DNA from: Burkholderiales bacterium
GTDB taxonomy: Bacteria; Pseudomonadota; Gammaproteobacteria; Burkholderiales; UBA6910
Direction of reading: 5' to 3'
DNA length: 64,000 bases
Assembly (NCBI GenBank): GCA_026005015.1
Contig: BPKG01000001.1
Location: 62,001-126,000, forward strand
Positions 49,297-62,572 of this stretch are shown one piece after another. The notes below the pieces were generated by a model, which saw only the letters and a list, made by a program, of their open reading frames with translations, made no database searches and was not told the origin of the DNA. The first letter of the stretch is position 1, and each line of letters starts with the position of its first letter. The translations under genes were made by a program, and so were the position numbers.

Positions 49297-50316
49297 ATGG
49301 AAGGAAGAGTCGGCAACGGCCGGGTGGCGGAAGGCGTGGCGGCTCCGGCGGCCGGTTCTAGGACGATCCGGCTTAAGGGGATCAACCGGGCCCACGCCGC
49401 CGGCTGGGGGCTGCTGGTGCTGGCCGGCCTTATCGCCCCCTTCCTGGTGTACCCGGTGTTCGTCATGAAGGTGCTGTGCTTCGCCCTCTTCGCCTCCGCC
49501 TTCAACCTGTTGCTGGGCTATACCGGGCTGCTTTCTTTCGGCCACGCCGCCTTTCTCGGCTGGGCCGGCTACATCACCGGGCACACGGTGAAGGTCATGG
49601 GGTTCCCGCCGGAGCTGGGGATCCTGGCTGGCACCGCTTTCGCGGGGCTGTTGGGCTACATCTTCGGCAGCCTGGCCATCCGGCGCTCGGGCATTTACTT
49701 CGCCATGATCACCCTGGCTCTCGCCCAGATGATGTACTTTCTGGCGCTGCAGTTTCCGTTCACCGGAGGCGAGGACGGGCTGCAAGGCGTGCCCCGGGGC
49801 ACTCTGTTGGGGATCGTGGACCTGAGCCGGATGATGAACATGTATTTCTTCGTGCTCGCCGTGTTCCTGTTCGGCTTCTGGGTGATCTACCGCACCATTC
49901 ATTCGCCGTTCGGACAAGTGTTGAAGGCGATCCGGGAGAACGAGCCCCGGGCCGTCTCCCTGGGTTACGACGTGGACAAGTTCAAGCTGATGGCCTTCGT
50001 GCTCTCCGCCGCCCTCTCGGGCCTGGCGGGCTCCACCAAGACCCTGGTATTCCAGCTCGCCTCCTTGACCGACGTGCACTGGCACATGTCCGGGGAGGTG
50101 GTGCTGATGACCCTGGTGGGCGGCATGGGTACGGTGTTTGGCCCGGTGGTGGGCGCCACCGTCCTAGTGACCCTGCAGAATTACGGCGCCGAGCTGGGCG
50201 AGTGGGTGACGGTCCTTACGGGGACGATTTTCGTGATCTGCGTGCTCGCGTTCCGGCGCGGGATCGTGGGTGAGCTCACGGCCCTCTACCGCCGCTCGGG
50301 CATTTCCTTACGGTGA
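49297..50316 (+). CDS. livM: branched-chain-type ABC transporter permease LivM
   Basis: The 339-residue permease starts one base after the livH stop. It has a polar N-terminus of about 30 residues and then multiple helices with the LivM blocks [26 protein letters not shown] and [25 protein letters not shown]. With LivH it forms the transmembrane pathway. Its last codon region overlaps a GTG that could start etfB, though the ATG six bases past the stop is preferred. Confidence 0.93.
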
Positions 50317-50321
50317 AGGCG

Positions 50322-51071
50322 ATGAAGATCCTGGTTCCGGTCAAGCGGGTGGTGGACTACAACGTGAAGGTCCGGGTCAAGGCGGACGGCACGGGGGTGG
50401 AAACGGCCAACGTCAAGATGTCCATGAACCCCTTCGACGAAATCGCCATGGAGGAGGCGGTACGGCTCAAGGAAGCGGGCAAGGCGGCCGAGATCGTGGC
50501 CGTTTCCCTGGGGGTCGCCCAGTGCCAGGAAACCCTGCGCACGGCGCTCGCCATGGGGGCGGACCGGGCCCTCCTGGTGGAGACTTCCGCCGAGCTGCAG
50601 CCCCTGGCGGTGGCCAAGCTCTTGAAGGCGATCGTGGAACGGGAGCAGCCCGGCCTGGTGATCCTGGGCAAACAGGCGATCGACGACGACGCCAACCAGA
50701 CCGGGCAGATGCTGGCGGCCCTCCTCGGCTGGCCCCAGGGCACCTTCGCCTCCAAGGTGGAGCTGGGGGAGGGGCGGGTCCGGGTCACGCGGGAGATCGA
50801 CGGGGGCCTGGAGACGGTGGAGTTGCAGCTCCCGGCGGTGGTGACCACCGACCTGCGGTTGAACGAACCCCGTTACGTCACGCTGCCCAACATCATGAAG
50901 GCGAAGAAAAAGCCTCTGGAGGCCTTCACCCCCGAAGCCCTGGGTGTGGACGTCACGCCGCGGCTCAAGGTCCTCAAGGTGCAGGAGCCGCCCAAGCGCA
51001 AAGGGGGCGTGCGGGTGGCCGACGCGAAGGAGCTGGTGCACCGGCTCAAGCACGAAGCGAAGGTGGTCTGA
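50322..51071 (+). CDS. etfB: electron transfer flavoprotein subunit beta
   Basis: EtfB with EtfA carries electrons from acyl-CoA dehydrogenases to the quinone pool. The 249-residue product begins [16 protein letters not shown] and contains the AMP-binding and recognition-loop region [21 protein letters not shown]. The ATG at 50322 with GAAGG upstream gives the canonical length; an in-frame GTG at 50313 overlapping livM would add three residues. It abuts etfA directly. Confidence 0.95.
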
Positions 51072-52025
51072 ATGGCGGTCCTGGTCATTGCCGAGCACGA
51101 CGGTGCCGCCCTCAAGCCGGCGACCCTCAACACCCTCACCGCGGCGGCTTGCCTCGATCCGCAAGTTCACGTCCTGGTGGCCGGGTCGGCGTGCCGCCCG
51201 GTCGCCGAGGCCGCGGCGAAAGTGGGGGGGGTGGCCAAGGTGCTCCTCGCCGATGCCCCTCAGCTCAAGGACCTGCTGGCGGAGAACCTGGCCCCCCTGA
51301 TCGCCCGGCTCGCCCCGGGCTACAGCCACGTCCTGGCGCCCGCCACCACCTTCGGCAAGAACGTGATGCCCCGGGCGGCGGCCCTGCTGGACGTGGCCCA
51401 GGTGTCCGATATCGTGGCGATCGAGTCCCCTGACACCTTCGTGCGGCCCATTTATGCCGGTAACGCGCTCGCCACGGTGCAGGCGACCGATCCCGTCAAG
51501 GTAATCACGGTGCGCACCACCGCCTTCGAGGCTGCGCCCCGGGAGGGTGGGGCCGCCACCATCGAGGCGGTGGAAGCGCCTCCGGACGCGGGCCTTTCCC
51601 GGCTGCTGGGGCAGGAGCTCACCCGCTCGGCCCGCCCCGAGCTCACCGCCGCCCGGGTGGTCGTCGCCGGTGGCCGGGCTCTCGGGAGCGCGGAGAACTT
51701 CATGAAGCTGCTCGAGCCCCTGGCGGATAAGCTCAACGCCGCCATCGGCGCCTCCCGCGCCGCCGTGGACGCGGGCTTCGTACCCAACGACTACCAGGTG
51801 GGGCAGACCGGCAAGGTGGTGGCCCCGGAGCTCTACATCGCGGTGGGCATCTCGGGGGCGATCCAGCACCTGGCGGGGATGAAGGACTCCAAGGTGATCG
51901 TGGCCATCAACAAGGACGTGGACGCCCCCATTTTCCAGGTGGCCGACTACGGGCTGGTGGCCGATATTTTCCAGGCGGTGCCCGAGCTGGTGAAGGAGCT
52001 GGAGGCCGCTGCAGGCCAAACGTAG
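51072..52025 (+). CDS. etfA: electron transfer flavoprotein subunit alpha
   Basis: The 317-residue protein starts immediately after the etfB stop. The C-terminal FAD domain is intact, with [42 protein letters not shown] and [18 protein letters not shown]. Position between the transporter and an acyl-CoA dehydrogenase gene fits a dedicated electron acceptor for the local beta-oxidation enzymes. Confidence 0.95.
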
Positions 52026-52064
52026 TGGCGCGCAGGCGCAGGCGAGCCTTTTTGTGGGAGTTGC

Positions 52065-53861
52065 ATGATGAGCACGTACATCGCGCCTCTCCAGGACATG
52101 CGCTTCGTGCTGGAGGAGCTAGCGGGGCTACCTGAGGTGGCGGCGCTGCCGGGCTACGAGGAGGTCACCCCGGACCTGGTGGGCGCCATCCTCCAGGAGG
52201 CAGCCCGGTTCGCGGCCGAAGTGCTCGCCCCCCTGAACGCCGTGGGGGACCGGCACGGCAGCCGCCTCGAAGGCGGCCGGGTGGTCACCCCGCCGGGCTT
52301 TCGCGATGCCTACCGGCGCTTCGTGGCGGCCGGCTGGAACGGGCTGGACGCCGATCCCCGCTTCGGCGGCCAGGGCCTGCCGCAACTGGTGGCGAAGCCC
52401 GTGCACGAGATGTGGAAGTCGGCCAACCTGGCCTTTTCCCTCTGCCCCATGCTCACCGCGGCGGCGGCCAAGGCGATCCAGGCCCACGGCTCGGAAGCCC
52501 AGCAGGAGACCTTCCTGCCCAAACTGGTCTCGGGGGAATGGACCGGCACCATGAACTTGACGGAGCCCCAGGCGGGCTCCGACCTCTCGGCGGTGCGCAC
52601 CCGGGCGATTCCCCAGGGGGATCACTACCGCATCCGGGGGACCAAGATCTTCATCACCTGGGGCGAGCACGACCTGGCGGAGAACATCGTCCACATGGTG
52701 CTTGCAAGACTCCCCGACGCCCCCGAAGGGGTGAAGGGGATCTCCCTCTTCATCGTGCCCAAGTTCCTGGTGAACCGGGACGGCAGCCTGGGGCCGCGCA
52801 ACGACGTGCAGGCGGTGTCCCTGGAGCACAAGATGGGCATCCACGCAAGCCCCACCGCGGTGATGGCTTACGGGGAGAACGAGGGCGCCGTCGGCTACCT
52901 GGTGGGCGAGCCCCACCGGGGGCTCGAATACATGTTCACCATGATGAACAACGCCCGCCTGGCGGTGGGTCTCGAAGGGGTGGCCATTTCCGAGCGGGCG
53001 TACCAGCAGGCCGCGGCCTACGCCAAGGAGCGGGTGCAGGGCCGCCCAGCGGGACGCGAGAGCGAGGAGCGGGTGCCCATCATCCATCACCCGGACGTGC
53101 GGCGCATGTTGATGAGCATGAGGGCCCAGGTGGAGGCGATGCGCTCGCTCGCCTACTTCGCCTCCGGGCTCCTCGACCGGGCGGAGCGCCATCCGGATCC
53201 CGCGGCCCGGCGGGAGGCCCAGGCCCTGGTGGATCTCCTCACTCCGGTGGTGAAGGGCTGGTGCACCGAGCAGTCGGTGGAGGTCGCATCCACCGGCATC
53301 CAGGTGCACGGGGGCATGGGCTACATCGAGGAGACCGGCGCCTGCCAGCACCTGCGGGACGCCCGCATCACCCCCATTTACGAGGGCACGACCGGCATCC
53401 AGGCGAACGATCTCATGGGGCGCAAGCTCGTGCGAGACGGAGGCGCCACCGCCACCGCCTTCATCCGGCGCATGCGCGCCGACGCGGAGGCCCTGGCGCG
53501 GGCGGGCGACGCGGAGCTCGCGCCTGTGGCCCAGGGGCTGGCCCGAGGCCTCGAGGCCCTGGAGGAGGCGAGCCGCTGGCTGCTCCGGGTGCATCCCGAG
53601 CGGCCCGCCGCCGCGGCCGCCGGCTCGGTTCCCTACCTCAAGCTTTTCGGCTGGGTGGCCGGGGGCTGGCTGCTGGCGAGGGCGGCCAAGGTGGCGGGGG
53701 AGCGCCTGCAGGACCCGCAAGCCGACGAGGCCTGGTGCCGGGCCAAGCGGGTGACGGCCCGCTTCTACGCCGAGCATTGCCTGCCCCAGGCCCAGGCCCT
53801 GGCCCTCGCCATCACCCGAGGGGCCGACAGCGTGCTGGCGCTGGACGCCTCGGCGTTCTAG
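52065..53861 (+). CDS. acyl-CoA dehydrogenase with C-terminal extension (DmdC/AcdH-type)
   Basis: The 598-residue flavoprotein oxidises an acyl-CoA to the 2-enoyl-CoA. It has the three acyl-CoA dehydrogenase domains, with MNLTEPQAGSDLSAVRT for FAD/substrate binding, VHGGMGYIEETGACQHLRDARI, and the catalytic Glu in YEGTTGIQ, then a C-terminal extension of the acyl-CoA dehydrogenase_C type (about residues 470-598). Such long forms are common for 3-methylthiopropionyl-CoA and related substrates. Two adjacent ATG codons (52065, 52068) could start it. Confidence 0.93.
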   Translation: MMSTYIAPLQDMRFVLEELAGLPEVAALPGYEEVTPDLVGAILQEAARFAAEVLAPLNAVGDRHGSRLEGGRVVTPPGFRDAYRRFVAAGWNGLDADPRFGGQGLPQLVAKPVHEMWKSANLAFSLCPMLTAAAAKAIQAHGSEAQQETFLPKLVSGEWTGTMNLTEPQAGSDLSAVRTRAIPQGDHYRIRGTKIFITWGEHDLAENIVHMVLARLPDAPEGVKGISLFIVPKFLVNRDGSLGPRNDVQAVSLEHKMGIHASPTAVMAYGENEGAVGYLVGEPHRGLEYMFTMMNNARLAVGLEGVAISERAYQQAAAYAKERVQGRPAGRESEERVPIIHHPDVRRMLMSMRAQVEAMRSLAYFASGLLDRAERHPDPAARREAQALVDLLTPVVKGWCTEQSVEVASTGIQVHGGMGYIEETGACQHLRDARITPIYEGTTGIQANDLMGRKLVRDGGATATAFIRRMRADAEALARAGDAELAPVAQGLARGLEALEEASRWLLRVHPERPAAAAAGSVPYLKLFGWVAGGWLLARAAKVAGERLQDPQADEAWCRAKRVTARFYAEHCLPQAQALALAITRGADSVLALDASAF

Positions 53862-53905
53862 CCCGCCGGCCGCTTCCCCGGCTTAGCGGAAAAATCTAAA
53901 TCTCC

Positions 53906-53934
53906 TTGACGCCGCCGCTCCGTTGCGCCATAAT
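53906..53934 (+). promoter_or_regulatory. sigma-70-type promoter of the TetR gene
   Basis: TTGACG (53906-53911), a 17-base spacer, then CATAAT (53929-53934). Transcription would start near 53941. The final T of the -10 is the first base of the palindromic operator, so a bound repressor would block RNA polymerase. Confidence 0.75.
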
Positions 53935-53962
53935 TCAAACGTTCGTTTGAAGCGAACGTTCG
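53934..53962 (+). promoter_or_regulatory. PsrA-like operator for the TetR regulator
   Basis: TTCAAACG-TT-CGTTTGAA (53934-53951) is an inverted repeat with 8-base arms and fits the PsrA consensus CAAAC-N2-4-GTTTG of fatty-acid-responsive TetR repressors. A second short palindrome CGAACGTTCG lies at 53953-53962, just before the ATG. The site overlaps the -10 and start of transcription, implying autorepression. Confidence 0.7.
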
Positions 53963-53965
53963 ACC

Positions 53966-54709
53966 ATGCCCCCCAGAACTCCCCTGCCTTGCGACGATGC
54001 CCCGGATGCGGCCTCACCGGAGCGGGCCGCCGACGCCAACACCAAGGACCGGATCCTGGACGCCGCCGAGGCGCTATTCATGGAACGGGGGTTCGTCGCC
54101 ACTTCCTTGCGCATGATCACCGCCCGGGCGGGGGTGAACCTGGCGGCGGTGAACTATCACTTCGGTTCCAAGGAAGAATTGATCAAGGCCGTGTTCAGCC
54201 GGCGCCTCGGCCCCCTAAACCAGGAGCGAGTGGCGATCCTGGATCAGTTGGAACGGGAGGCCGAAGGCAAGCCCTTGCCGCCGGAAAAGATCCTGGAGGC
54301 GTTCCTGTGCGCCTCTCTGCGCCTTTCGCGGGACCCCCTGCGGGGCGGCGCGGTGTTTCTGCGATTGCTAGGGCAGGCCTTCGCCGAGCCGGCCGAGTAC
54401 ATGCGCAACTTCCTTCCCGAGCAGTACCGGGAGGTGGTGACTCGCTACAAGGCGGCCTTCGCCCGGGCGCTGCCCCAGATCCCCGAGGAGGAGCTGGTGT
54501 GGCGGCTACACTTCCTGTTCGGCGCCATCGCCTACAGCATGGCGGGCCACGACGCCCTGCGCCTAATCTGCAGCTACTCCCTGGAGGGCAGCGACCGGCC
54601 CGAGACCATCATCCGGCACCTGATCCCCTTCGCCGTGGGGGGGCTCACGGCCCCGCTGCCCCGGCCCCGGGTGGTGGAGCAGGCGAAAGGGAAGCGCAAG
54701 CGGGCTTGA
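53966..54709 (+). CDS. TetR-family regulator, PsrA/FadR-like
   Basis: The 247-residue protein has an N-terminal TetR helix-turn-helix (TKDRILDAAEALFMERGF, then MITARAGVNLAAVNYHFGSKEELI) and a C-terminal ligand domain with an Arg/Lys-rich end. The operator upstream and the position within a fatty-acid cluster indicate an acyl-CoA-responsive repressor. It lies between the long-chain acyl-CoA dehydrogenase genes and probably controls itself and the following fadE operon. The ligand is inferred, not shown. Confidence 0.88.
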   Translation: MPPRTPLPCDDAPDAASPERAADANTKDRILDAAEALFMERGFVATSLRMITARAGVNLAAVNYHFGSKEELIKAVFSRRLGPLNQERVAILDQLEREAEGKPLPPEKILEAFLCASLRLSRDPLRGGAVFLRLLGQAFAEPAEYMRNFLPEQYREVVTRYKAAFARALPQIPEEELVWRLHFLFGAIAYSMAGHDALRLICSYSLEGSDRPETIIRHLIPFAVGGLTAPLPRPRVVEQAKGKRKRA

Positions 54710-54778
54710 CGCGCCGGCGCGGGATGAGCCCGCAGAAGGGAGTCGTCGGGCTGGGTTGAAACACCATCGGAGGAAGAC

Positions 54779-57250
54779 ATGGCAACCGTTGCTTGGATCG
54801 TGGTTCTCGTCGCCCTGGGGGCGGGGCTGGCGATGCGCCGGGCCTCCGGGCTCGCCTGGGCCGGGGCGGTCCTCGCCGCGTTCGTCTTCGTGGCCCTAGG
54901 GGGAGGGGCTGCATGGCTCGTGTGGCTCCTGGCGGTGCTGGCCCTGGCGGCCGTGGCCCTCAACGTGACGCCACTGCGCCGGGCGCTCGCGAGCGACCGG
55001 CTATTCGACGGCTTCAAGAAGGCCTTGCCCCAGGTGTCCTCCACCGAGCAGGAAGCACTGGAGGCGGGCACCGTGTGGTGGGACGGGGAGCTCTTTAGCG
55101 GCCGGCCCGACTGGAAAAAGCTCCTGGCCGTGCCCAAGCCTCGACTCTCCGAGGAGGAAGAAGCCTTCCTGGAGGGCCCGGTGGAGGAGCTGTGCGCCCT
55201 GGTGGACGAATGGCGCGTCACCCACGAGTGGTACGACCTTCCGCCCTCGGTGTGGCAGTTCATCAAGGATAAGGGCTTCCTGGGGATGATCATCCCCAAG
55301 GAGTACGGCGGTCTCGGGTTCTCGGCCCTCGCCCATTCCGAAGTCATCGCCAAGCTTTCGAGCCGCAGCGGCACCGCCGCCGTCACGGTGATGGTGCCCA
55401 ACTCCCTGGGCCCGGCGGAGTTGCTCCTCCACTACGGTACTGAGGAACAGAAGGCCTATTACCTGCCGCGCCTGGCCCGGGGCGAAGAGATTCCCTGCTT
55501 CGCCCTCACGGGCCCCGAGGCCGGCTCCGACGCCAGCTCCATCCCCGACTTCGGCATCGTGGGCCACGGGGAGCACGAGGGGCGCGAAGTCCTGGGCATC
55601 CGGCTCACCTGGGAGAAGCGCTACATCACCCTGGGTCCCGTGGCGACCCTGCTGGGCCTCGCTTTCCGCCTGTACGATCCGGACCGGCTGCTCGGGGACA
55701 AGGAGGATATCGGCATCACCCTGGCCCTGGTGCCCACCCGGCACCCGGGCGTCCACATCGGGCGCCGGCATCTGCCCTTGAACGCCGCCTTCCAGAACGG
55801 CCCCACCTGGGGCAAGGACGTGTTCATCCCCCTGGACTGGGTGATCGGCGGCCGCGACCGGGTGGGTCAGGGCTGGCGCATGCTGATGGAATGTCTGGCG
55901 GCCGGCCGCTCCATCTCCCTGCCGGCTTCCGCCACGGGCGGCGCCAAGCTCGCCGCCCGGGCGAGCGGCGCCTACGCCCGGGTCAGGGTGCAGTTCAAAA
56001 CCCCCATCGGGCGCTTCGAGGGGGTGGAGGAGGCCCTCGCCCGCATCGCTGGCCACACCTACGTGATGGACGCGGCACGCCGGATGACCGCGGGCGCAGT
56101 GGACCTGGGGGAGAAGCCGTCGGTGGTCTCGGCCATCTGCAAGTACCACCTGACCGAGCGGGGGCGTCAGGTGATCAACGACGCCATGGATGTGCACGGG
56201 GGCAAGGGCATCTGCCTTGGCCCCCGCAACCTCCTGGGCCGGCCCTACCAGCACACCCCCATCGGCATCACAGTGGAGGGGGCCAATATCCTCACCCGCA
56301 GCATGATCATCTTCGGCCAGGGCGCCATCCGCTGCCATCCTTACGTACTCAAGGAAATCGCCGCCATCCGGGAAGCCGACCCGGAGAAGGCCCGCGCCGC
56401 CTTCGACCAAGCCCTGTGGAGCCACATCGGTTTCTTTCTTTCCAACGCCGTGGGCAGCTTTATCTTCGGGCTCACCGACGGCCGCGGCGCCGGTGCGCCG
56501 GGAGCCCCGGCGCTGGCCCGGTATTACGAGAAGCTCGCCCGCTACTCGGCCGCCCTGGCCTTCGCCGCCGACCTGGCCATGCTCACCCTGGGCGGGTCCC
56601 TGAAGCGCCGGGAGTGCATCTCCGCCCGCCTGGGGGATGTGTTGAGCCAGCTTTACCTGGGCTCGGCGGTGCTCAAGCGCTTTGAGGACGACGGCCGGCC
56701 GGCGGAAGACCTGCCCCTCGCCCGCTGGGGGTTGGAGGACATCCTCCATCGCATCGAGGACGCCTTCGCCGGGCTGATCCAGAACTTCCCCAACCGCCCC
56801 GCGGCCTGGCTGCTGCGGGCGGTGACGCTGCCCCTCGGCCGGCGGCAGGCGCCCCCCGGCGACCGGCTGAGCCACGAGGTGGCGGAGCGGCTGCTCGCAC
56901 CTAGTGCCGTCCGGGACCGGCTTACCGCCGGCATGTACCTGCCCAAGGCGGCGGCAGAGCCCCTCGCCCAGCTCGAGCGGGCGCTGGAAGCGGCCATCCG
57001 GGCCGAGGTGGTGGAGGCGAAGATCCGGGCGGCCGCGAAAGAGGGGGCGCTCCTGTTGCGGGGGCGCGAAGACGAGACGAAGCTCGCTTTGGAGCTGGGC
57101 GTCATCACCCCCGAAGAGTTCGACGCGCTGGTAGAGGCCCGGGCGCTGCGGCGAGAGGTGATCATGGTGGACGACTTCCCGCCGGACTTCGGGATCGCCA
57201 GGAAGTCCGAGGCGGCGGCCCAGACCGTTGGAGCGAGGAAGACGGCGTGA
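54779..57250 (+). CDS. fadE: FadE-type long-chain acyl-CoA dehydrogenase with N-terminal membrane region
   Basis: The 823-residue protein matches the enterobacterial FadE architecture: two N-terminal hydrophobic segments (about residues 5-35 and 38-62), the dehydrogenase core with IPCFALTGPEAGSDASSIPD and DAMDVHGGKGICLGPRNLLG, the VEGANILTRSM segment and a long C-terminal DUF1974-type domain. It catalyses the first step of long-chain beta-oxidation at the membrane. A CGGAGGAAGAC ribosome site precedes the ATG. The stop overlaps the next gene by GTGA. Confidence 0.93.
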   Translation: MATVAWIVVLVALGAGLAMRRASGLAWAGAVLAAFVFVALGGGAAWLVWLLAVLALAAVALNVTPLRRALASDRLFDGFKKALPQVSSTEQEALEAGTVWWDGELFSGRPDWKKLLAVPKPRLSEEEEAFLEGPVEELCALVDEWRVTHEWYDLPPSVWQFIKDKGFLGMIIPKEYGGLGFSALAHSEVIAKLSSRSGTAAVTVMVPNSLGPAELLLHYGTEEQKAYYLPRLARGEEIPCFALTGPEAGSDASSIPDFGIVGHGEHEGREVLGIRLTWEKRYITLGPVATLLGLAFRLYDPDRLLGDKEDIGITLALVPTRHPGVHIGRRHLPLNAAFQNGPTWGKDVFIPLDWVIGGRDRVGQGWRMLMECLAAGRSISLPASATGGAKLAARASGAYARVRVQFKTPIGRFEGVEEALARIAGHTYVMDAARRMTAGAVDLGEKPSVVSAICKYHLTERGRQVINDAMDVHGGKGICLGPRNLLGRPYQHTPIGITVEGANILTRSMIIFGQGAIRCHPYVLKEIAAIREADPEKARAAFDQALWSHIGFFLSNAVGSFIFGLTDGRGAGAPGAPALARYYEKLARYSAALAFAADLAMLTLGGSLKRRECISARLGDVLSQLYLGSAVLKRFEDDGRPAEDLPLARWGLEDILHRIEDAFAGLIQNFPNRPAAWLLRAVTLPLGRRQAPPGDRLSHEVAERLLAPSAVRDRLTAGMYLPKAAAEPLAQLERALEAAIRAEVVEAKIRAAAKEGALLLRGREDETKLALELGVITPEEFDALVEARALRREVIMVDDFPPDFGIARKSEAAAQTVGARKTA

Positions 57251-58032
57251 GGGAAAGCGTGCGTCTCGAGCGGGACGGGGCGGTGGCCGCCATCGTGCTC
57301 CATCGCCCGCAGGCGCTGAATGCCCTGGACGGAGAAATGATGGCTCAGTTGCGTTTCGCGGCAGAGCAGGTGGAAGCGGACGCGTCGGTGCGGGCTGTGG
57401 TGATCCGGGGAGAGGGGCCGGCGTTTCTGGCGGGGGGCGACGTGAAGCTGTTCCACCGGCGCATCCAGGAGCTTCCGGCCCTGATCCTGGCGGTGGGCCC
57501 GGACCTCAACGCCGCCGTGCTGGCCCTGCGGCGCATGGGCAAGCCCGTGCTGGCCAGCGTCCACGGCGCCGTGGCCGGAGCCGGGGTAAGCCTCGTGGCG
57601 GCGGCCGATCTGGCCATCGCTGCGGACGACGCCCGCTTCACCCTGGCCTACAGCCGCATCGGCGCGTGCCCCGACGGGGGAGCCACCTACTGCTTGCCCC
57701 GGCTCGTGGGGGAGAAAAAGGCCCTGGAGCTCATGTTCCTGTCGGAGGCCTTCGACGCCGCGACGGCCAAGGCGCTGGGCCTGGTGAACTGGGTGGTGCC
57801 CGCGGCCACGCTGCAGGCGAAGACCCGGGAGATCGCCGCCCGTCTCGCCGAAGGCCCGAGCTTCGCCTACGGGGAGACCAAGGCCCTGGTGTATGGGCTG
57901 CAGGACGGCGCCCTGGCCCGGCGGATGGAGGAGGAAAACCGGGCGTTCGCCCGCTGCGCCGCCACCGCCGACATGGCGGAGGGCGTGGCCGCGTTCGTGG
58001 AAAAGCGCGCGCCGCGGTTTGTGGGCGAGTGA
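57247..58032 (+). CDS. enoyl-CoA hydratase/isomerase family protein
   Basis: The 261-residue crotonase-fold protein has the CoA oxyanion-hole segments FLAGGDVKLF and HGAVAGAGVSLVAAADLAIA. The usual paired-Glu hydratase motif is replaced by IGACPDGGATYCLPRLVG, with a single acidic Asp as in PaaG/enoyl-CoA isomerase branches. It more likely isomerises double bonds or processes unsaturated acyl-CoA than acts as a plain hydratase. GTG start, overlapping fadE by four bases. Confidence 0.88.
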   Translation: MRESVRLERDGAVAAIVLHRPQALNALDGEMMAQLRFAAEQVEADASVRAVVIRGEGPAFLAGGDVKLFHRRIQELPALILAVGPDLNAAVLALRRMGKPVLASVHGAVAGAGVSLVAAADLAIAADDARFTLAYSRIGACPDGGATYCLPRLVGEKKALELMFLSEAFDAATAKALGLVNWVVPAATLQAKTREIAARLAEGPSFAYGETKALVYGLQDGALARRMEEENRAFARCAATADMAEGVAAFVEKRAPRFVGE

Positions 58033-58044
58033 ATCAAAGCATGA

Positions 58045-58112
58045 ACCGCAGAGGCACAAAGGAAGAAATAATTTTTTCTTCTTTTCTCTGTGTGCGGCTG
58101 TGTTTCTGCGGT
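58045..58112. repeat. 68-base inverted-repeat element with ACCGCAGA ends
   Basis: The gap between the enoyl-CoA enzyme and SDR genes is almost wholly an imperfect palindrome. It starts ACCGCAGAGGCACA and ends with TCTGCGGT (58105-58112), with an AT-rich centre of AAGAAATAATT/TTTTCTT. Similar CCGCAGAG/CACAGAG intergenic repeats are scattered in many bacterial genomes. Its AT content stands out sharply from the surroundings. The GAGGG ribosome site for the SDR gene begins right after the right end. Confidence 0.75.
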
Positions 58113-58123
58113 AGAGGGAAAAC

Positions 58124-58945
58124 ATGCGTACACTGAAAGGCAAGACGGTCTTCATCACCGGCGCAAGCCGCGGCATCGGCCGGGAGATCGCCCTGCGCTT
58201 CGCCCGGGACGGGGCGCAGGTGGTGGTCACCGGCAAGACCGCCGAGCCCCATCCGAAGCTCAAGGGGACCATTTATAGCGTAGCGGAGGAAGTGGAGCGC
58301 GAGGGCGGCCGGGCCCTCGCCTTGCAGCTCGACGTGCGCGACGACGCGGCGCTGCGGCAGGCCGTGGAACGGGCGGCCGAGCGCTTCGGCGGCATCGACG
58401 TGCTGGTGAACAACGCCAGCGCCATCTCCCTCACCGGGATGCTGGAGACGCCCATGAAGCGCTTCGATCTCATGATGGCGGTCAACCTGCGCGCTACCTT
58501 CGCCGCGTCGCAAACTTGCGTGCCTTATCTCAAACGCTCGGTGAACCCCCACATCCTCACCCTGTCGCCGCCCCTCAACCTGGACCCCCGCTGGTTCAAG
58601 GACCACCTGGCTTACACCATCTCCAAGTACGGGATGAGCCTGTGTACCCTGGGCATGGCGGCGGAGCTCGCCCCCGACGGGATCGCCGTGAATTCCCTGT
58701 GGCCGAAGACCATCATCGCCACGGCGGCGATCGAGTTCAATTTCCCGCCGCAGCTCCTCGCCCGCAGCCGCACGCCGGCCATCGTGGCCGACGCCGCCTA
58801 CGCCATCGTCACCCAGGACAGCCGGCGGGTGACAGGCAACTTCTTCCTCGACGAGGACGTGCTGCGGGCCGAGGGTGTCGAGGACTTCCAGTGCTACGCC
58901 GTGAACCCCGGACAATCCTTGTTTCCGGATCTGTTCGTCGACTGA
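58124..58945 (+). CDS. short-chain dehydrogenase, HSDL2-like
   Basis: The 273-residue SDR has the NAD(P) loop TGASRGIG near the N-terminus, the NNASAIS motif, the active-site Ser in LTLSPPLNL and the YTISK catalytic pair. The HPKLKGTI and DPRWFKDHLAYTISK segments resemble the hydroxysteroid dehydrogenase-like 2 family, often found with acyl-CoA enzymes. The likely reaction is reversible oxidation of a hydroxyacyl or related substrate. A GAGGG site 6-8 bases before the ATG is supplied just past the repeat. Confidence 0.88.
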   Translation: MRTLKGKTVFITGASRGIGREIALRFARDGAQVVVTGKTAEPHPKLKGTIYSVAEEVEREGGRALALQLDVRDDAALRQAVERAAERFGGIDVLVNNASAISLTGMLETPMKRFDLMMAVNLRATFAASQTCVPYLKRSVNPHILTLSPPLNLDPRWFKDHLAYTISKYGMSLCTLGMAAELAPDGIAVNSLWPKTIIATAAIEFNFPPQLLARSRTPAIVADAAYAIVTQDSRRVTGNFFLDEDVLRAEGVEDFQCYAVNPGQSLFPDLFVD

Positions 58946-58955
58946 GGAGGGATCC

Positions 58956-60773
58956 ATGGACAGGCCCGCATTCGCCAACGTGGACATCATTCCCCTGGAG
59001 GAGGCGACGACCCTCTCCGCGCTGTTCCGCGCCCGCGTGGCCCGCTCGGGGCAAGCCGTCGCCTACCGGGAATACGATCCCGCCGCGGGCGCCTGGCAGG
59101 GTTACACCTGGAACCAGATGGAGGCGGAGGTCGCCCGCTGGCAGGCGGCCATGGAGCGGGACGGGCTCAAGCCCGGCGACCGGGTCGCCATCATGCTGCC
59201 CAACGGCACCGCCTGGGTGAAGTTCGACCAGGCGGCGTTGGGGCTCGGGCTGGTGGTGGTGCCCCTCTACACCTCCGACCGCCCGGACAACGTGGCCTAC
59301 GTGGTGCGGGACTCGGGGGCCAAGCTCCTGCTCTTCGAGGGCATGGAGCAATGGCAGGCGCTGGCGGAGGTGAAGGACCAGCTCGAGGGCTTGGTGCGGT
59401 TGCTGAGCTTGAAGCCCCTGGGGGGCGCCGGGGACGATTCGCGGCTCATGGCCGTGGACGACTGGCTGCCCGATCGGGCCGGGGCGGCCCGCAGCCTGCC
59501 GGTGGATCCCGATGCCCTCGCCACCATCGTCTACACCTCCGGCACCACCGGGCGGCCCAAAGGGGTAATGCTTTCCCACCGCAACATTCTCAGCAACGCC
59601 GCGGCCTGCCTCAAGACCATGGAGGTGACCACCCAGGACCTGATGCTCTCCTTCCTGCCCCTGTCCCACACCTTCGAGCGCACCGTGGGCTATTACCTCG
59701 CCATAATGTCCGGAACGCCGGTAGCCTACGCCCGCTCGGTGCAGTCGCTTGGGGAGGATCTCCAGCAGGTGCGGCCCACCCTGCTCATCACGGTGCCGCG
59801 CATCTTCGAGCGGGTCTATTCGGCCCTCCGCCAGAAGCTCGCCGAGTCGCCCGCCCCCCGGCGCAAGCTGTTCGAGCTGGCGGTGGAGGTGGGCTACGCC
59901 CGGTTCGAGCACGCCCAGGGACGGGGGGCTCTGCATCCCATGAACTTCCTTTGGCCGGTGCTCAAGCGCCTGGTGGCGGACAAGGTGCTGGAGCGGCTGG
60001 GAGGACGGGTGCGGGCGGCCATCTGCGGCGGCGCCGCCCTCTCGCCCGAGATCTCCCGGGTCTTCATCGGCCTCGGGCTGCCGGTGCTCCAGGGCTACGG
60101 GCTCACCGAAGCGAGCCCCGTGGTCACCGCCAACCGGCTGGACGACAACGTGCCGGAGAGCGTGGGCCTACCGCTGCCGGGAGTCGAGGTCAGGTTGGGG
60201 GACAAGGAAGCCCTCCTGGTGCGCGGGCCCAATGTCATGCTGGGCTACTGGAACAACAAGGAGGCCACCCGGGCGGTGCTGAGCGAGGACGGCTGGCTCA
60301 ACACGGGCGACACCGCCCGCCTGGACGAGGCGACCCGTGTGTACATCACGGGCCGGCTCAAGGACATCATCGTGCTCTCCACGGGGGAGAAGGTGCCGCC
60401 GGTGGACATGGAGACGGCCATCCTGCGCGATCCCCTGTTCGAACAGGTGATGGTGCTGGGCGAGGGCCGGCCGTACCTTTCCGTGCTGGCGGTGCTGAAC
60501 CCCGACCGCTGGCAAGCGCTGGCGAGGGAGCTTGGGCTCAATCCCCATTCCGAGGCGGATCTGCGCAGCGAGAAGCTCGAGGCGGTGGTCCTCCAGCGCA
60601 TCGCCCGGCAGGTGAAAGACTTTCCGGGCTACGCCCAGGTCCGGCGAGCCGCCGTGCTCCTCGAGCCGTGGACCGTGGAGAACGGCATGCTGACCCCCAC
60701 CATGAAGGTGCGGCGCGCCAAAGTGCTGGAGCGTCACGGGGACGTCGTCGCTGCTCTATACAAAGGCCACTGA
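58956..60773 (+). CDS. long-chain fatty acid-CoA ligase (FadD15/FACL type)
   Basis: The 605-residue ligase belongs to the AMP-forming long-chain acyl-CoA synthetases. The AMP motif is YTSGTTGRPKGVMLSH, with GYGLTEASPV and the DGWLNTGDTARLDE motif later, and a C-terminal STGEKVPPVDMETAI region. It activates long-chain acids for the FadE-type dehydrogenase upstream. An AGGAGGG site precedes the ATG, 10 bases after the SDR gene. Confidence 0.92.
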   Translation: MDRPAFANVDIIPLEEATTLSALFRARVARSGQAVAYREYDPAAGAWQGYTWNQMEAEVARWQAAMERDGLKPGDRVAIMLPNGTAWVKFDQAALGLGLVVVPLYTSDRPDNVAYVVRDSGAKLLLFEGMEQWQALAEVKDQLEGLVRLLSLKPLGGAGDDSRLMAVDDWLPDRAGAARSLPVDPDALATIVYTSGTTGRPKGVMLSHRNILSNAAACLKTMEVTTQDLMLSFLPLSHTFERTVGYYLAIMSGTPVAYARSVQSLGEDLQQVRPTLLITVPRIFERVYSALRQKLAESPAPRRKLFELAVEVGYARFEHAQGRGALHPMNFLWPVLKRLVADKVLERLGGRVRAAICGGAALSPEISRVFIGLGLPVLQGYGLTEASPVVTANRLDDNVPESVGLPLPGVEVRLGDKEALLVRGPNVMLGYWNNKEATRAVLSEDGWLNTGDTARLDEATRVYITGRLKDIIVLSTGEKVPPVDMETAILRDPLFEQVMVLGEGRPYLSVLAVLNPDRWQALARELGLNPHSEADLRSEKLEAVVLQRIARQVKDFPGYAQVRRAAVLLEPWTVENGMLTPTMKVRRAKVLERHGDVVAALYKGH

Positions 60774-60775
60774 CC

Positions 60776-61189
60776 ATGACGGCGGAGCAGAAGGAAACCC
60801 AGCGGCTGCCCCAGGGGCGGGAGCCGGTGCTGCGGGTGGTGCCCATGCCTTCGGACGCCAACTACCTGGGCGACATCTTCGGCGGCTGGATCATGTCCCA
60901 GGTGGACATCGCGGGCAGCATCCCGGCCATGCGCCGCGCCCGGGGCCGGGTGGCCACGGTGGCGGTGAACTCCTTCGTGTTCAAGCAGCCCGTGTTCGTC
61001 GGAGACCTGGTGAGCCTGTACGCGGAAGTGATCCGGGTGGGGAGGACCTCCATCACCGTGGACGTGCAGGTCTACGCCCAGCGCAACCCGGCGGAGGAAG
61101 AGTGCGTCAAGGTCACGGAAGCCACCCTCACCTACGTGGCGGTGGACGAGAAGCGCCGCCCCCGGGTGGTGCCGCCAGAGGCGGCGTGA
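60776..61189 (+). CDS. acyl-CoA thioesterase, YciA-type hotdog fold
   Basis: The 137-residue protein has the hotdog helix and catalytic Asp/Asn region DANYLGDIFGGWIMSQVDIAG of YciA/BACH thioesterases, followed by NSFVFKQPVFVGDLVSLYAEV. It would hydrolyse acyl-CoA and balance the local ligase. It starts three bases after the ligase stop, so is cotranscribed. Confidence 0.9.
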   Translation: MTAEQKETQRLPQGREPVLRVVPMPSDANYLGDIFGGWIMSQVDIAGSIPAMRRARGRVATVAVNSFVFKQPVFVGDLVSLYAEVIRVGRTSITVDVQVYAQRNPAEEECVKVTEATLTYVAVDEKRRPRVVPPEAA

Positions 61190-61300
61190 GGGAGGGTCCG
61201 ACCGGGTCTTCGGTATGGGTGTTTCAGGGATCGCGGGCCTGTCCCGGTGCAGCGGGCCGCAATCGAACATCGACTTGCACCCAGAGAGGAGAATGAAGCA

Positions 61301-62572
61301 ATGGAGAAAAACACGACACCGCTATGGGCAGGGCTGGGAGTGGCGGGGCTCCTGGCGGGATTCGCGGGGGGCGCCACGGCCGCCGGGTTCCAGCTCCTGG
61401 AGCAGAACGCCAGTGGCCTGGGCAACGCCTACGCCGGCACGGCGGCGGCGGCCGAGGACGCCAGCACCGTCTACTTCAACCCCGCGGGAATGAGCGCCCT
61501 CAAGGGCCGCGACCTGGCCGTGTCGGTCAACGCGATCCGGCCTTCCGCCAAGTTCAACAACCAGGGCTCGTCCACCACCTTTCCCGTGCCCACCATCTTG
61601 GGCACCAACAACGGGGGCGACGCCGGGGACTGGGCGCTCCTGCCGGCCCTGTACTACGCCCATGGGCTCAATCCGGACTGGACCGTCGGCCTCGGCATCA
61701 ACGCTCCCTTCGGCTTGAAGACGGAATACGACCCGGACTGGATCGGGCGCTTTCAGGGCATCAAGTCCGAGCTGACAACCATCGCCATCACCCCCACCGT
61801 GTCCTACCGGATCAATACCACCACCTCGGTGGGCCTGGGCCTGCGGGCCCAGCGGGCCGACGCGGAATTGACGACGGCGGTCAATCCCCTGGATCCCACC
61901 GGCGCCCAGCAGGCCAAGGTGGAGGGGGACGACTGGGGCTTCGGCTTTTCCCTGGGGATCCTGCACCAGTTGACGCCGTCGACCCGGCTCGGGCTCGCGT
62001 ATCAGTCCCAGATCGAGCACAAGGTGAAGGGCAACCTTACGTCCCCCGCGGGAACCACGCCGGCTAAGGCGGAAGTCACCCTGCCCGACATCGTCACCTT
62101 GAGCTTCGTGCACCAGCTCAATCCCCGGTGGGAGCTGCTGGGGGACGTCGCCTGGACCAACTGGAGCAAGTTCGATCGGCTCGACATCGTGAACCGCGAC
62201 ACGGGCGCCCTTTTAAGCTCCACCCCCGAGAACTGGGACGACTCCTGGCGCTTCGCCCTGGGGGTGAACTACCGGCACAGCCAGGCGTGGAAACTCCGCG
62301 CCGGCGTGGCCTACGACGAGACGCCGGTGCCCGACGCGTTCCGCACGGTGCGCATTCCGGACGAAAGCCGCTACTGGGTGGCCATCGGCGCCCAGTACCG
62401 GTTCGCTCCGGGCACGGCCATCGACGTGGGTTACGCGCACTTGTTCGTGCGCGATTCCTCCATCAATAAAACGGAGCCGATCCCGGGCGCGCCGGCTTTC
62501 ACCACCACGGTGCGCGGCGAATATGACAACAAGGTGGACATCATCGGGGTGCAGCTCTCCCATACCTTCTGA
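61301..62572 (+). CDS. FadL/OmpP1/TodX-family outer-membrane transporter
   Basis: The 423-residue protein has a signal peptide ending near ATAA, the mature N-terminal hatch GFQLLEQNASGLGNAYAGTAA and the NPAGMSAL motif, and an alternating beta pattern to a C-terminal Phe (LSHTF) typical of outer-membrane barrels. FadL-type proteins take up long-chain fatty acids or hydrophobic compounds. The ATG at 61301 follows an AGAGGAG site about 12 bases upstream. It gives the cluster its outer-membrane entry. Confidence 0.92.
   Translation: MEKNTTPLWAGLGVAGLLAGFAGGATAAGFQLLEQNASGLGNAYAGTAAAAEDASTVYFNPAGMSALKGRDLAVSVNAIRPSAKFNNQGSSTTFPVPTILGTNNGGDAGDWALLPALYYAHGLNPDWTVGLGINAPFGLKTEYDPDWIGRFQGIKSELTTIAITPTVSYRINTTTSVGLGLRAQRADAELTTAVNPLDPTGAQQAKVEGDDWGFGFSLGILHQLTPSTRLGLAYQSQIEHKVKGNLTSPAGTTPAKAEVTLPDIVTLSFVHQLNPRWELLGDVAWTNWSKFDRLDIVNRDTGALLSSTPENWDDSWRFALGVNYRHSQAWKLRAGVAYDETPVPDAFRTVRIPDESRYWVAIGAQYRFAPGTAIDVGYAHLFVRDSSINKTEPIPGAPAFTTTVRGEYDNKVDIIGVQLSHTF

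What the first reader, a model, noticed from the sequence alone, without database searches (positions are those of the whole stretch)
53906..53962. Nested promoter and PsrA-like operator controlling the TetR gene
TTGACG-N17-CATAAT is followed at once by TTCAAACG-TT-CGTTTGAA, whose core fits CAAAC-N4-GTTTG, and then by a second palindrome CGAACGTTCG. The -10 shares a base with the operator. This arrangement predicts tight autorepression relieved by acyl-CoA, and links the regulator to beta-oxidation.
Basis: partly seen in the sequence, partly recalled or inferred. Interest (0 to 1): 0.5.

Follow-up and report, generated by a model that had tools for sequence, protein, structure and literature searches.

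The report
PsrA-type operator on fatty-acid operon promoter
A conserved DNA switch lies on the promoter of a gene cluster for burning fatty acids, where a PsrA-like repressor made by the cluster's first gene probably shuts the cluster off until fatty acids appear; this is a new example of a well-known kind of control.

Summary
Footprinting supports the site: a matching operator is found upstream in all 80 homologue loci fetched; with each site left out in turn, 79 of 81 (window included) beat every shuffled upstream region. The overlapping -10 recurs in 64 of 81. A fadE-type gene lies downstream in 73 of 80 loci, another acyl-CoA dehydrogenase in 4. The regulator resembles PDB 2fbq (P. aeruginosa PsrA, by recall), and the motif is the published PsrA box. 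So it is most likely an autoregulated psrA-like/fadE promoter. Corrections: (1) the second palindrome is not conserved as such; it lies in a degenerate second PsrA box 13 bp downstream, a spacing seen in 23 of 81 promoters (about 1 expected); (2) this genome has one clear operator, so control looks local; relatives carry boxes at etfB (3 genomes), fabD (1) and perhaps a thioesterase (1); (3) passages read name free long-chain fatty acids as PsrA effectors; acyl-CoA is unsupported. Binding and induction are inferred.

The parts
53906..53911 (+). -35 element TTGACG
   Evidence: part of the only promoter-like match in 53700-54200. A -35 of at least 4 of 6 (spacer 15-19) is present in 42 of 81 aligned promoters.
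53929..53934 (+). -10 element CATAAT, last T shared with the operator
   Evidence: at least 4 of 6 matches to TATAAT in this same register in 64 of 81 promoters; the next best of the 30 registers tested has 20.
53934..53951 (.). Main PsrA-type operator TTCAAACG-TT-CGTTTGAA (core CAAAC-N4-GTTTG)
   Evidence: matching operator upstream in all 80 homologue loci (2 of them weak); window site scores 34.3 bits with itself and identical sites left out; only exact copy in the genome.
53947..53964 (.).
   Evidence: second box at +13 in 23 of 81 promoters (20 of 66 after dereplication; shuffle means 1.03 and 0.80); the window is at the threshold (5 of 7). Same-genus relative L100 reads GTTTGAATCAGACGTTTGA.
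53966..54709 (+). psrA-like TetR-family repressor, 247 aa
   Evidence: Pfam TetR_N + TetR_C_30; PDB 2fbq E 8.1e-47; the 2fbq segment finds this gene best in the genome, E 4.4e-47, next 1.0e-6.
54779..57250 (+). fadE-type acyl-CoA dehydrogenase, first gene after the regulator
   Evidence: NCBIfam PRK09463 1173.6 bits, above its cut-off of 600; a similar gene lies downstream in 73 of 80 homologue loci.
57247..58032 (+). enoyl-CoA hydratase/isomerase, overlaps fadE by 4 bp
   Evidence: Pfam ECH_1.
58124..58945 (+). SDR family oxidoreductase, possibly the same transcript
   Evidence: NCBIfam PRK08278 429 bits, above its cut-off of 250.
58956..60773 (+). acyl-CoA synthetase (FadD-like)
   Evidence: Pfam AMP-binding.
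60776..61189 (+). YciA-like acyl-CoA thioesterase (ATG at 60776; the scans were given 60785-61186)
   Evidence: Pfam 4HBT; NCBIfam YciA 126.1 bits, below its cut-off of 162.
61301..62572 (+). FadL/OMPP1-type outer-membrane transporter (ATG at 61301 is my choice, the ORF is open from 61247; the scans were given 61319-62569)
   Evidence: Pfam Toluene_X; NCBIfam FadL 213.3 bits, below its cut-off of 585.
50313..53861 (+). etfB, etfA and an acyl-CoA dehydrogenase immediately upstream; no operator in front of them in this window
   Evidence: ORFs; etfA and the dehydrogenase by Pfam, etfB by position and sequence only; matrix scan of the window.

Best explanation
This is the promoter/operator of a psrA-like/fadE operon, most likely in a betaproteobacterium. 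Shown by sequence: a sigma-70-type promoter whose -10 runs into a conserved PsrA box, a PsrA-like TetR gene directly behind it, and fadE and further beta-oxidation genes behind that; operator, overlapping -10 and a following acyl-CoA dehydrogenase gene recur in relatives. Inferred: a dimer of the TetR protein binds 53934-53951, over the -10 and the expected start of transcription (about 53940), and blocks RNA polymerase, so the protein represses itself and the fadE-ech genes probably co-transcribed with it. Long-chain fatty acids, as free acids or less likely acyl-CoA, bind the repressor and release it. A weaker second box 13 bp downstream may take a second dimer and strengthen repression. In this genome the regulator appears to act only here.
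For: Operator upstream in all 80 homologue loci, 79 of 81 above every shuffle when left out of training. -10 in the shared register in 64 of 81; -35 and -10 together in 37 of 81 against a shuffle mean of 1.66, largest 8 in 500. fadE-type gene downstream in 73 of 80 loci, another acyl-CoA dehydrogenase in 4 more. Best PDB match 2fbq, with the stretch GVNLAAVNYHFGSK identical; the 2fbq segment in turn finds this gene first in the genome. Motif equals the published PsrA box (passages of PMC13104628, PMC5722320). Order-wide 40 operator sites in 29 of 120 genomes against 8 control sites; 16 lie before a psrA-like gene, 3 before etfB, 1 before fabD, 1 before a YciA-like gene. Precedent: Smlt2053 represses its own fad operon, whose promoter holds such boxes, and its DNA binding is affected by long-chain but not by short (C4) or medium (C8) fatty acids (passages of PMC10304680).
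Against: No binding or expression data exist for this organism. 91 of the 120 order genomes have no site by the strict pattern, and 19 of the 40 sites found were not tied to a psrA-like, etf, thioesterase or fabD gene; some lie inside open frames. L026 and L037 have a weak operator and no window-like dehydrogenase gene nearby. The NCBIfam PsrA model is matched at 178 bits, below its cut-off of 300. No second clear operator exists in this genome, so a wider regulon is not supported here.
Confidence: 0.88

Rival explanations
1. The regulator is FadP, the other betaproteobacterial TetR repressor of fatty-acid degradation, not a PsrA-type protein.
For: Among the regulators studied there, FadP is unique to betaproteobacteria and is predicted to govern beta-oxidation in Ralstonia, Burkholderia and Comamonadaceae, while PsrA in Ralstonia and Burkholderia shifts to fatty-acid synthesis (passages of PMC5343134). 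A FadP-like repressor lies beside a beta-oxidation operon (passages of PMC12543098).
Against: Best PDB match is 2fbq, which in turn finds this gene first in the genome; the box is the PsrA box; FadP governs 12 operons in R. solanacearum, whereas one site is found here. FadP itself was not compared.
Confidence: 0.1
2. The repressor is induced by long-chain acyl-CoA, rather than by free fatty acid.
For: Acyl-CoA is the effector named for the TetR-type regulator YsiA of Bacillus (passage of PMC6637906). An acyl-CoA synthetase gene lies in this cluster.
Against: Free long-chain fatty acids are the effectors reported for PsrA and Smlt2053 in the passages read.
Confidence: 0.25
3. The CGAACGTTCG palindrome is a separate operator for another regulator.
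For: It is a perfect 10-bp palindrome in the leader.
Against: In the same-genus relative L100 the same positions read CAGACGTTTG, not a palindrome, while the +13 GTTTG half-site is present there in full.
Confidence: 0.05

Closest known systems
PsrA of Pseudomonas aeruginosa/P. putida (autorepressed in P. putida; represses PA0506 fadE-type, fadBA5, etfBA in P. aeruginosa)
   Same: TetR family, related protein (41% identity to 2fbq), same box, own promoter covered, fadE-type and (in relatives) etfB targets; literature side from passages.
   Different: Single psrA gene in P. aeruginosa, here first gene of a fadE cluster; one site in this genome instead of a broad regulon. The rpoS gene was not looked for here.
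Smlt2053 of Stenotrophomonas maltophilia (regulator-fadB-fadA type operon)
   Same: Autorepressed first gene of a fad operon; PsrA box; a second box and a second gel-shift complex; no target outside its operon confirmed by qRT-PCR in the passages seen.
   Different: Followed by FadB/FadA variants rather than fadE; spacing of its second box not seen by me.
FadP of Ralstonia/Burkholderia
   Same: TetR-family repressor of beta-oxidation genes in betaproteobacteria (passages).
   Different: Wide regulon (12 operons in R. solanacearum); its sequence and motif were not compared here.
TfmR of Xanthomonas citri
   Same: TetR repressor of fadE released by long-chain fatty acids (passages).
   Different: Divergent from the mhpC/fadE operon; the paper names another gene, XAC2014, as the PsrA homologue.

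Membership tests
PsrA-type TetR regulators | TetR-family protein related by sequence to P. aeruginosa PsrA | tested here: met
   TetR_N + TetR_C_30; 2fbq E 8.1e-47, next PDB match 1.1e-11; 2fbq segment finds this gene first in the genome. That 2fbq is PsrA/PA3006 is recalled; the PDB table says only probable transcriptional regulator, and one search found no relevant paper.
PsrA-type TetR regulators | Box C/GAAAC-N2-4-GTTTG/C at its own promoter | tested here: met
   motif from passages.
PsrA-type TetR regulators | Linked to fatty-acid degradation genes | tested here: met
   fadE-type gene downstream in 73 of 80 loci; etfB sites in 3 of 120 order genomes.
PsrA-type TetR regulators | Several targets across the genome (seen in P. 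aeruginosa; not required of the family, since Smlt2053 is nearly local) | tested here: not met
   One exact operator in this genome; degenerate hits at control level.
PsrA-type TetR regulators | Release from DNA by long-chain fatty acids | not testable with these tools
   Needs protein.
NCBIfam NF053516 (model named TranRepPrsAVib, PsrA equivalog) | Score at or above the curated cut-off of 300 bits | tested here: not met
   178.3 bits; so it is not filed under that equivalog. The psrA-like protein of L131 scores 177.6.
FadP | Closer to FadP than to PsrA; FadP motif | not tested
   No FadP sequence or motif obtained.

The most novel reading that the evidence does not exclude
In part of the betaproteobacteria the psrA-like/fadE promoter carries two PsrA boxes fused at a fixed 13-bp offset (CAAAC-N4-GTTTGAAAC-N4-GTTTG), the second weaker, so that two dimers, about a quarter turn apart on the helix, give stepwise or cooperative release along a fatty-acid gradient; other lineages keep only one box. 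In the window's family the whole regulon has shrunk to this single promoter.
Probability: 0.35. Interest if true: 0.35.

Novelty: new member of a known kind. Interest (0 to 1): 0.22.

Why it matters
It ties an uncharacterised regulator to its operator, promoter and target genes by conservation across many, mostly betaproteobacterial, genomes, and suggests that outside the lineages described for Ralstonia and Burkholderia a PsrA-like protein sits on a fatty-acid degradation operon. The fixed 13-bp second box is a concrete, easily tested detail of how repression may be tuned.

Tried and rejected
Wider regulon in this genome: not supported, hits at control level (CAAACGNNCGTTTG with up to 2 mismatches 47 against 45; SAAACN{2,4}GTTTS 7 against 4; TTNAAACRWWYGTTTNAA with up to 3 mismatches 10 against 9, one of the 10 being the second box itself). 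Twelve of the near-matches were examined for open frames only, not for gene identity.

Extended palindrome (ATGATT...AATCAT) as an alternative architecture: 14 of 95 promoters, permuted flanks mean 6.3 and largest 14, so inconclusive.

Independence of the CGAACGTTCG palindrome: rejected on relatives. Rfam element in the window: none at gathering threshold. Terminator between acd and the promoter: none found.

Of the 40 order-wide sites, 19 were not tied to a psrA-like, etf, thioesterase or fabD gene. Neighbours of five of them were named by Pfam: a GNAT acetyltransferase (L104), a CecR-type TetR (both sites of L105), an aminotransferase (L129) and an aldehyde dehydrogenase (L134). The two of L106 got no ORF check; the other twelve got an ORF check but no family search, so they may or may not touch fatty-acid genes.

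Full report
What is there. It is the only promoter-like match in 53700-54200 (0.1 expected in shuffles), the only operator match in the window with up to 3 mismatches (0.03 expected) and the only exact CAAACGNNCGTTTG in 3.38 Mb.

The regulator. The 247-aa ORF 53966-54709 has TetR_N and TetR_C_30 domains. Its best match among solved structures is 2fbq (E 8.1e-47; next 1.1e-11), which I recall to be P. aeruginosa PsrA (PA3006); the table calls it a probable transcriptional regulator only. Searching this genome with the 2fbq segment returns this gene first (41% identity, E 4.4e-47), the next at 1.0e-6. The NCBIfam PsrA model, whose name points to Vibrio, gives 178.3 bits, under its cut-off of 300, so I call the protein PsrA-like.

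Is the operator real. An 18-bp matrix trained on their upstream regions has the consensus TTCAAACGATCGTTTGAA and gives a best hit above 15 bits in all 80 and in the window (upstream sequence was short in L079 and L081). With each site, and any identical to it, left out, the window scores 34.3, the median is 31.3, and 79 of 81 exceed the largest of 4050 shuffled upstream regions (17.1); L026 and L037 do not. The sites used for training were themselves picked with the full matrix, so this control is not fully independent. There are 42 distinct site sequences among the 81. The -10 in the register that shares its last T with the operator is present (at least 4 of 6) in 64 of 81, against at most 20 in the other 29 registers tested; -35 and -10 together in 37 of 81 against a shuffle mean of 1.66 (largest 8 in 500).

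The genes behind it. A gene similar to the window's fadE lies downstream on the same strand in 73 of 80 loci: in 72 its match begins within 1 kb of the start of the regulator's match, in L052 at 1.7 kb. Four more (L024, L049, L056, L066) have an acyl-CoA dehydrogenase of the other type; L060 ends with the regulator; L026 and L037 show neither. In the window the order is etfB, etfA, acyl-CoA dehydrogenase, promoter, psrA-like, fadE, enoyl-CoA hydratase, SDR, acyl-CoA synthetase, YciA-like thioesterase, FadL-type porin. From 54600 to 62500 no promoter-like match was found (0.3 expected) and 6 terminator-like ones (4.1 expected, both strands); this fits but does not prove one transcript.

The second palindrome. 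CGAACGTTCG lies inside 53947-53964, TTGAAGCGAACGTTCGAC, a degenerate copy of the operator displaced by 13 bp. Counting matches to AC-N4-GTTTG right after the main operator, 23 of 81 promoters reach 5 of 7 (shuffle mean 1.03, largest 8 in 2000), and 20 of 66 after removal of similar flanks (mean 0.80, largest 5); offsets 14 to 26 give at most 2. The window itself only just reaches 5 of 7. Adding 14 order-level promoters gives 29 of 95, so most promoters do not show it. The same-genus relative reads GTTTGAATCAGACGTTTGA and same-family L099 GTTTGAATCGGTCGTTTGA: the half-site is there, the palindrome is not. The S. maltophilia PsrA homologue also has a second box and a second gel-shift complex (passages of PMC10304680); its spacing I did not see.

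Is there a regulon. In this genome there is no sign of one: degenerate matches are at control level. All 4 genomes of the family examined (this one included) have the psrA-like/fadE site; with up to 1 mismatch each has one site only, and one of them also has one control hit. Across 120 genomes of the order, drawn evenly, at least 90% complete, this one included, the motif TTNAAACRNNYGTTTNAA occurs 40 times in 29 genomes against 8 for the reversed pattern (sums are mine). The other 91 genomes have none; whether they hold a psrA-like gene was not tested. Of the 40, 16 precede a psrA-like gene; 3 precede etfB (L125 and L126 with etfA behind it, L133 tested for etfB only); 1 precedes fabD (L128); 1 precedes a YciA-like gene (L132:14850), but there the site also lies within other open frames; 19 were not tied to such a gene. 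etfBA is a reported PsrA target in P. aeruginosa (passage of PMC13104628), and control of fatty-acid synthesis by PsrA is predicted for Ralstonia and Burkholderia (passage of PMC5343134).

Mechanism. The operator spans the end of the -10 and the expected start of transcription, so binding should exclude RNA polymerase; the passage on P. putida describes this for psrA, with the box between -18 and +20 (PMC13104628). Effector: the passages read report long-chain fatty acids for P. aeruginosa PsrA (PMC5722320) and for Smlt2053 (PMC10304680); PMC13104628 leaves acyl-CoA open. So fatty-acid relief is likely, acyl-CoA specifically is not supported. The leader would be about 25 nt, and I see no clear ribosome-binding site in it (inference).

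Novelty. Known kind, new member. Searches of the held papers showed no paper on this operon in these lineages among the rows listed (8 to 20 per search, out of up to 878 papers), and the regulon database behind PMC5343134 and the 2009 FadP/PsrA paper (not held) could not be read, so it may be recorded there. Of PMC5343134, PMC13104628, PMC10304680, PMC6637906, PMC5722320 and PMC12543098 I saw passages only; other papers only as search listings.

Noticed in passing
window 58034-58130: AT-rich imperfect palindrome between the enoyl-CoA hydratase and SDR genes; 58030-58130 folds at -34.4 kcal/mol (z -3.7). Its arm AACCGCAGAGRCRCARAGG has 7 matches in the genome with up to 2 mismatches against 0 in the control; some may be two arms of one element. 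Looks like a small dispersed repeat; no Rfam match at gathering threshold.
   Followed up: partly
L105 (sites 1501 and 1524) and L106 (same positions): Two full operator-like palindromes 23 bp apart in two genomes of one other family of the order; in L105 they lie in front of a different TetR gene with a CecR-type C-terminal domain.
   Followed up: partly
L114 site 1501, L130 site 2473: Operator-like sites in front of similar reading frames (both hold FKANDSLTEQIA near the start) in two genomes of one family; by eye a GntR-type regulator, not tested.
   Followed up: no
L128:2535-2552: PsrA-type box starting 59 bp before the fabD start codon in a genome whose psrA-like gene also has a box (L109), fitting the published idea that PsrA can control fatty-acid synthesis.
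   Followed up: partly
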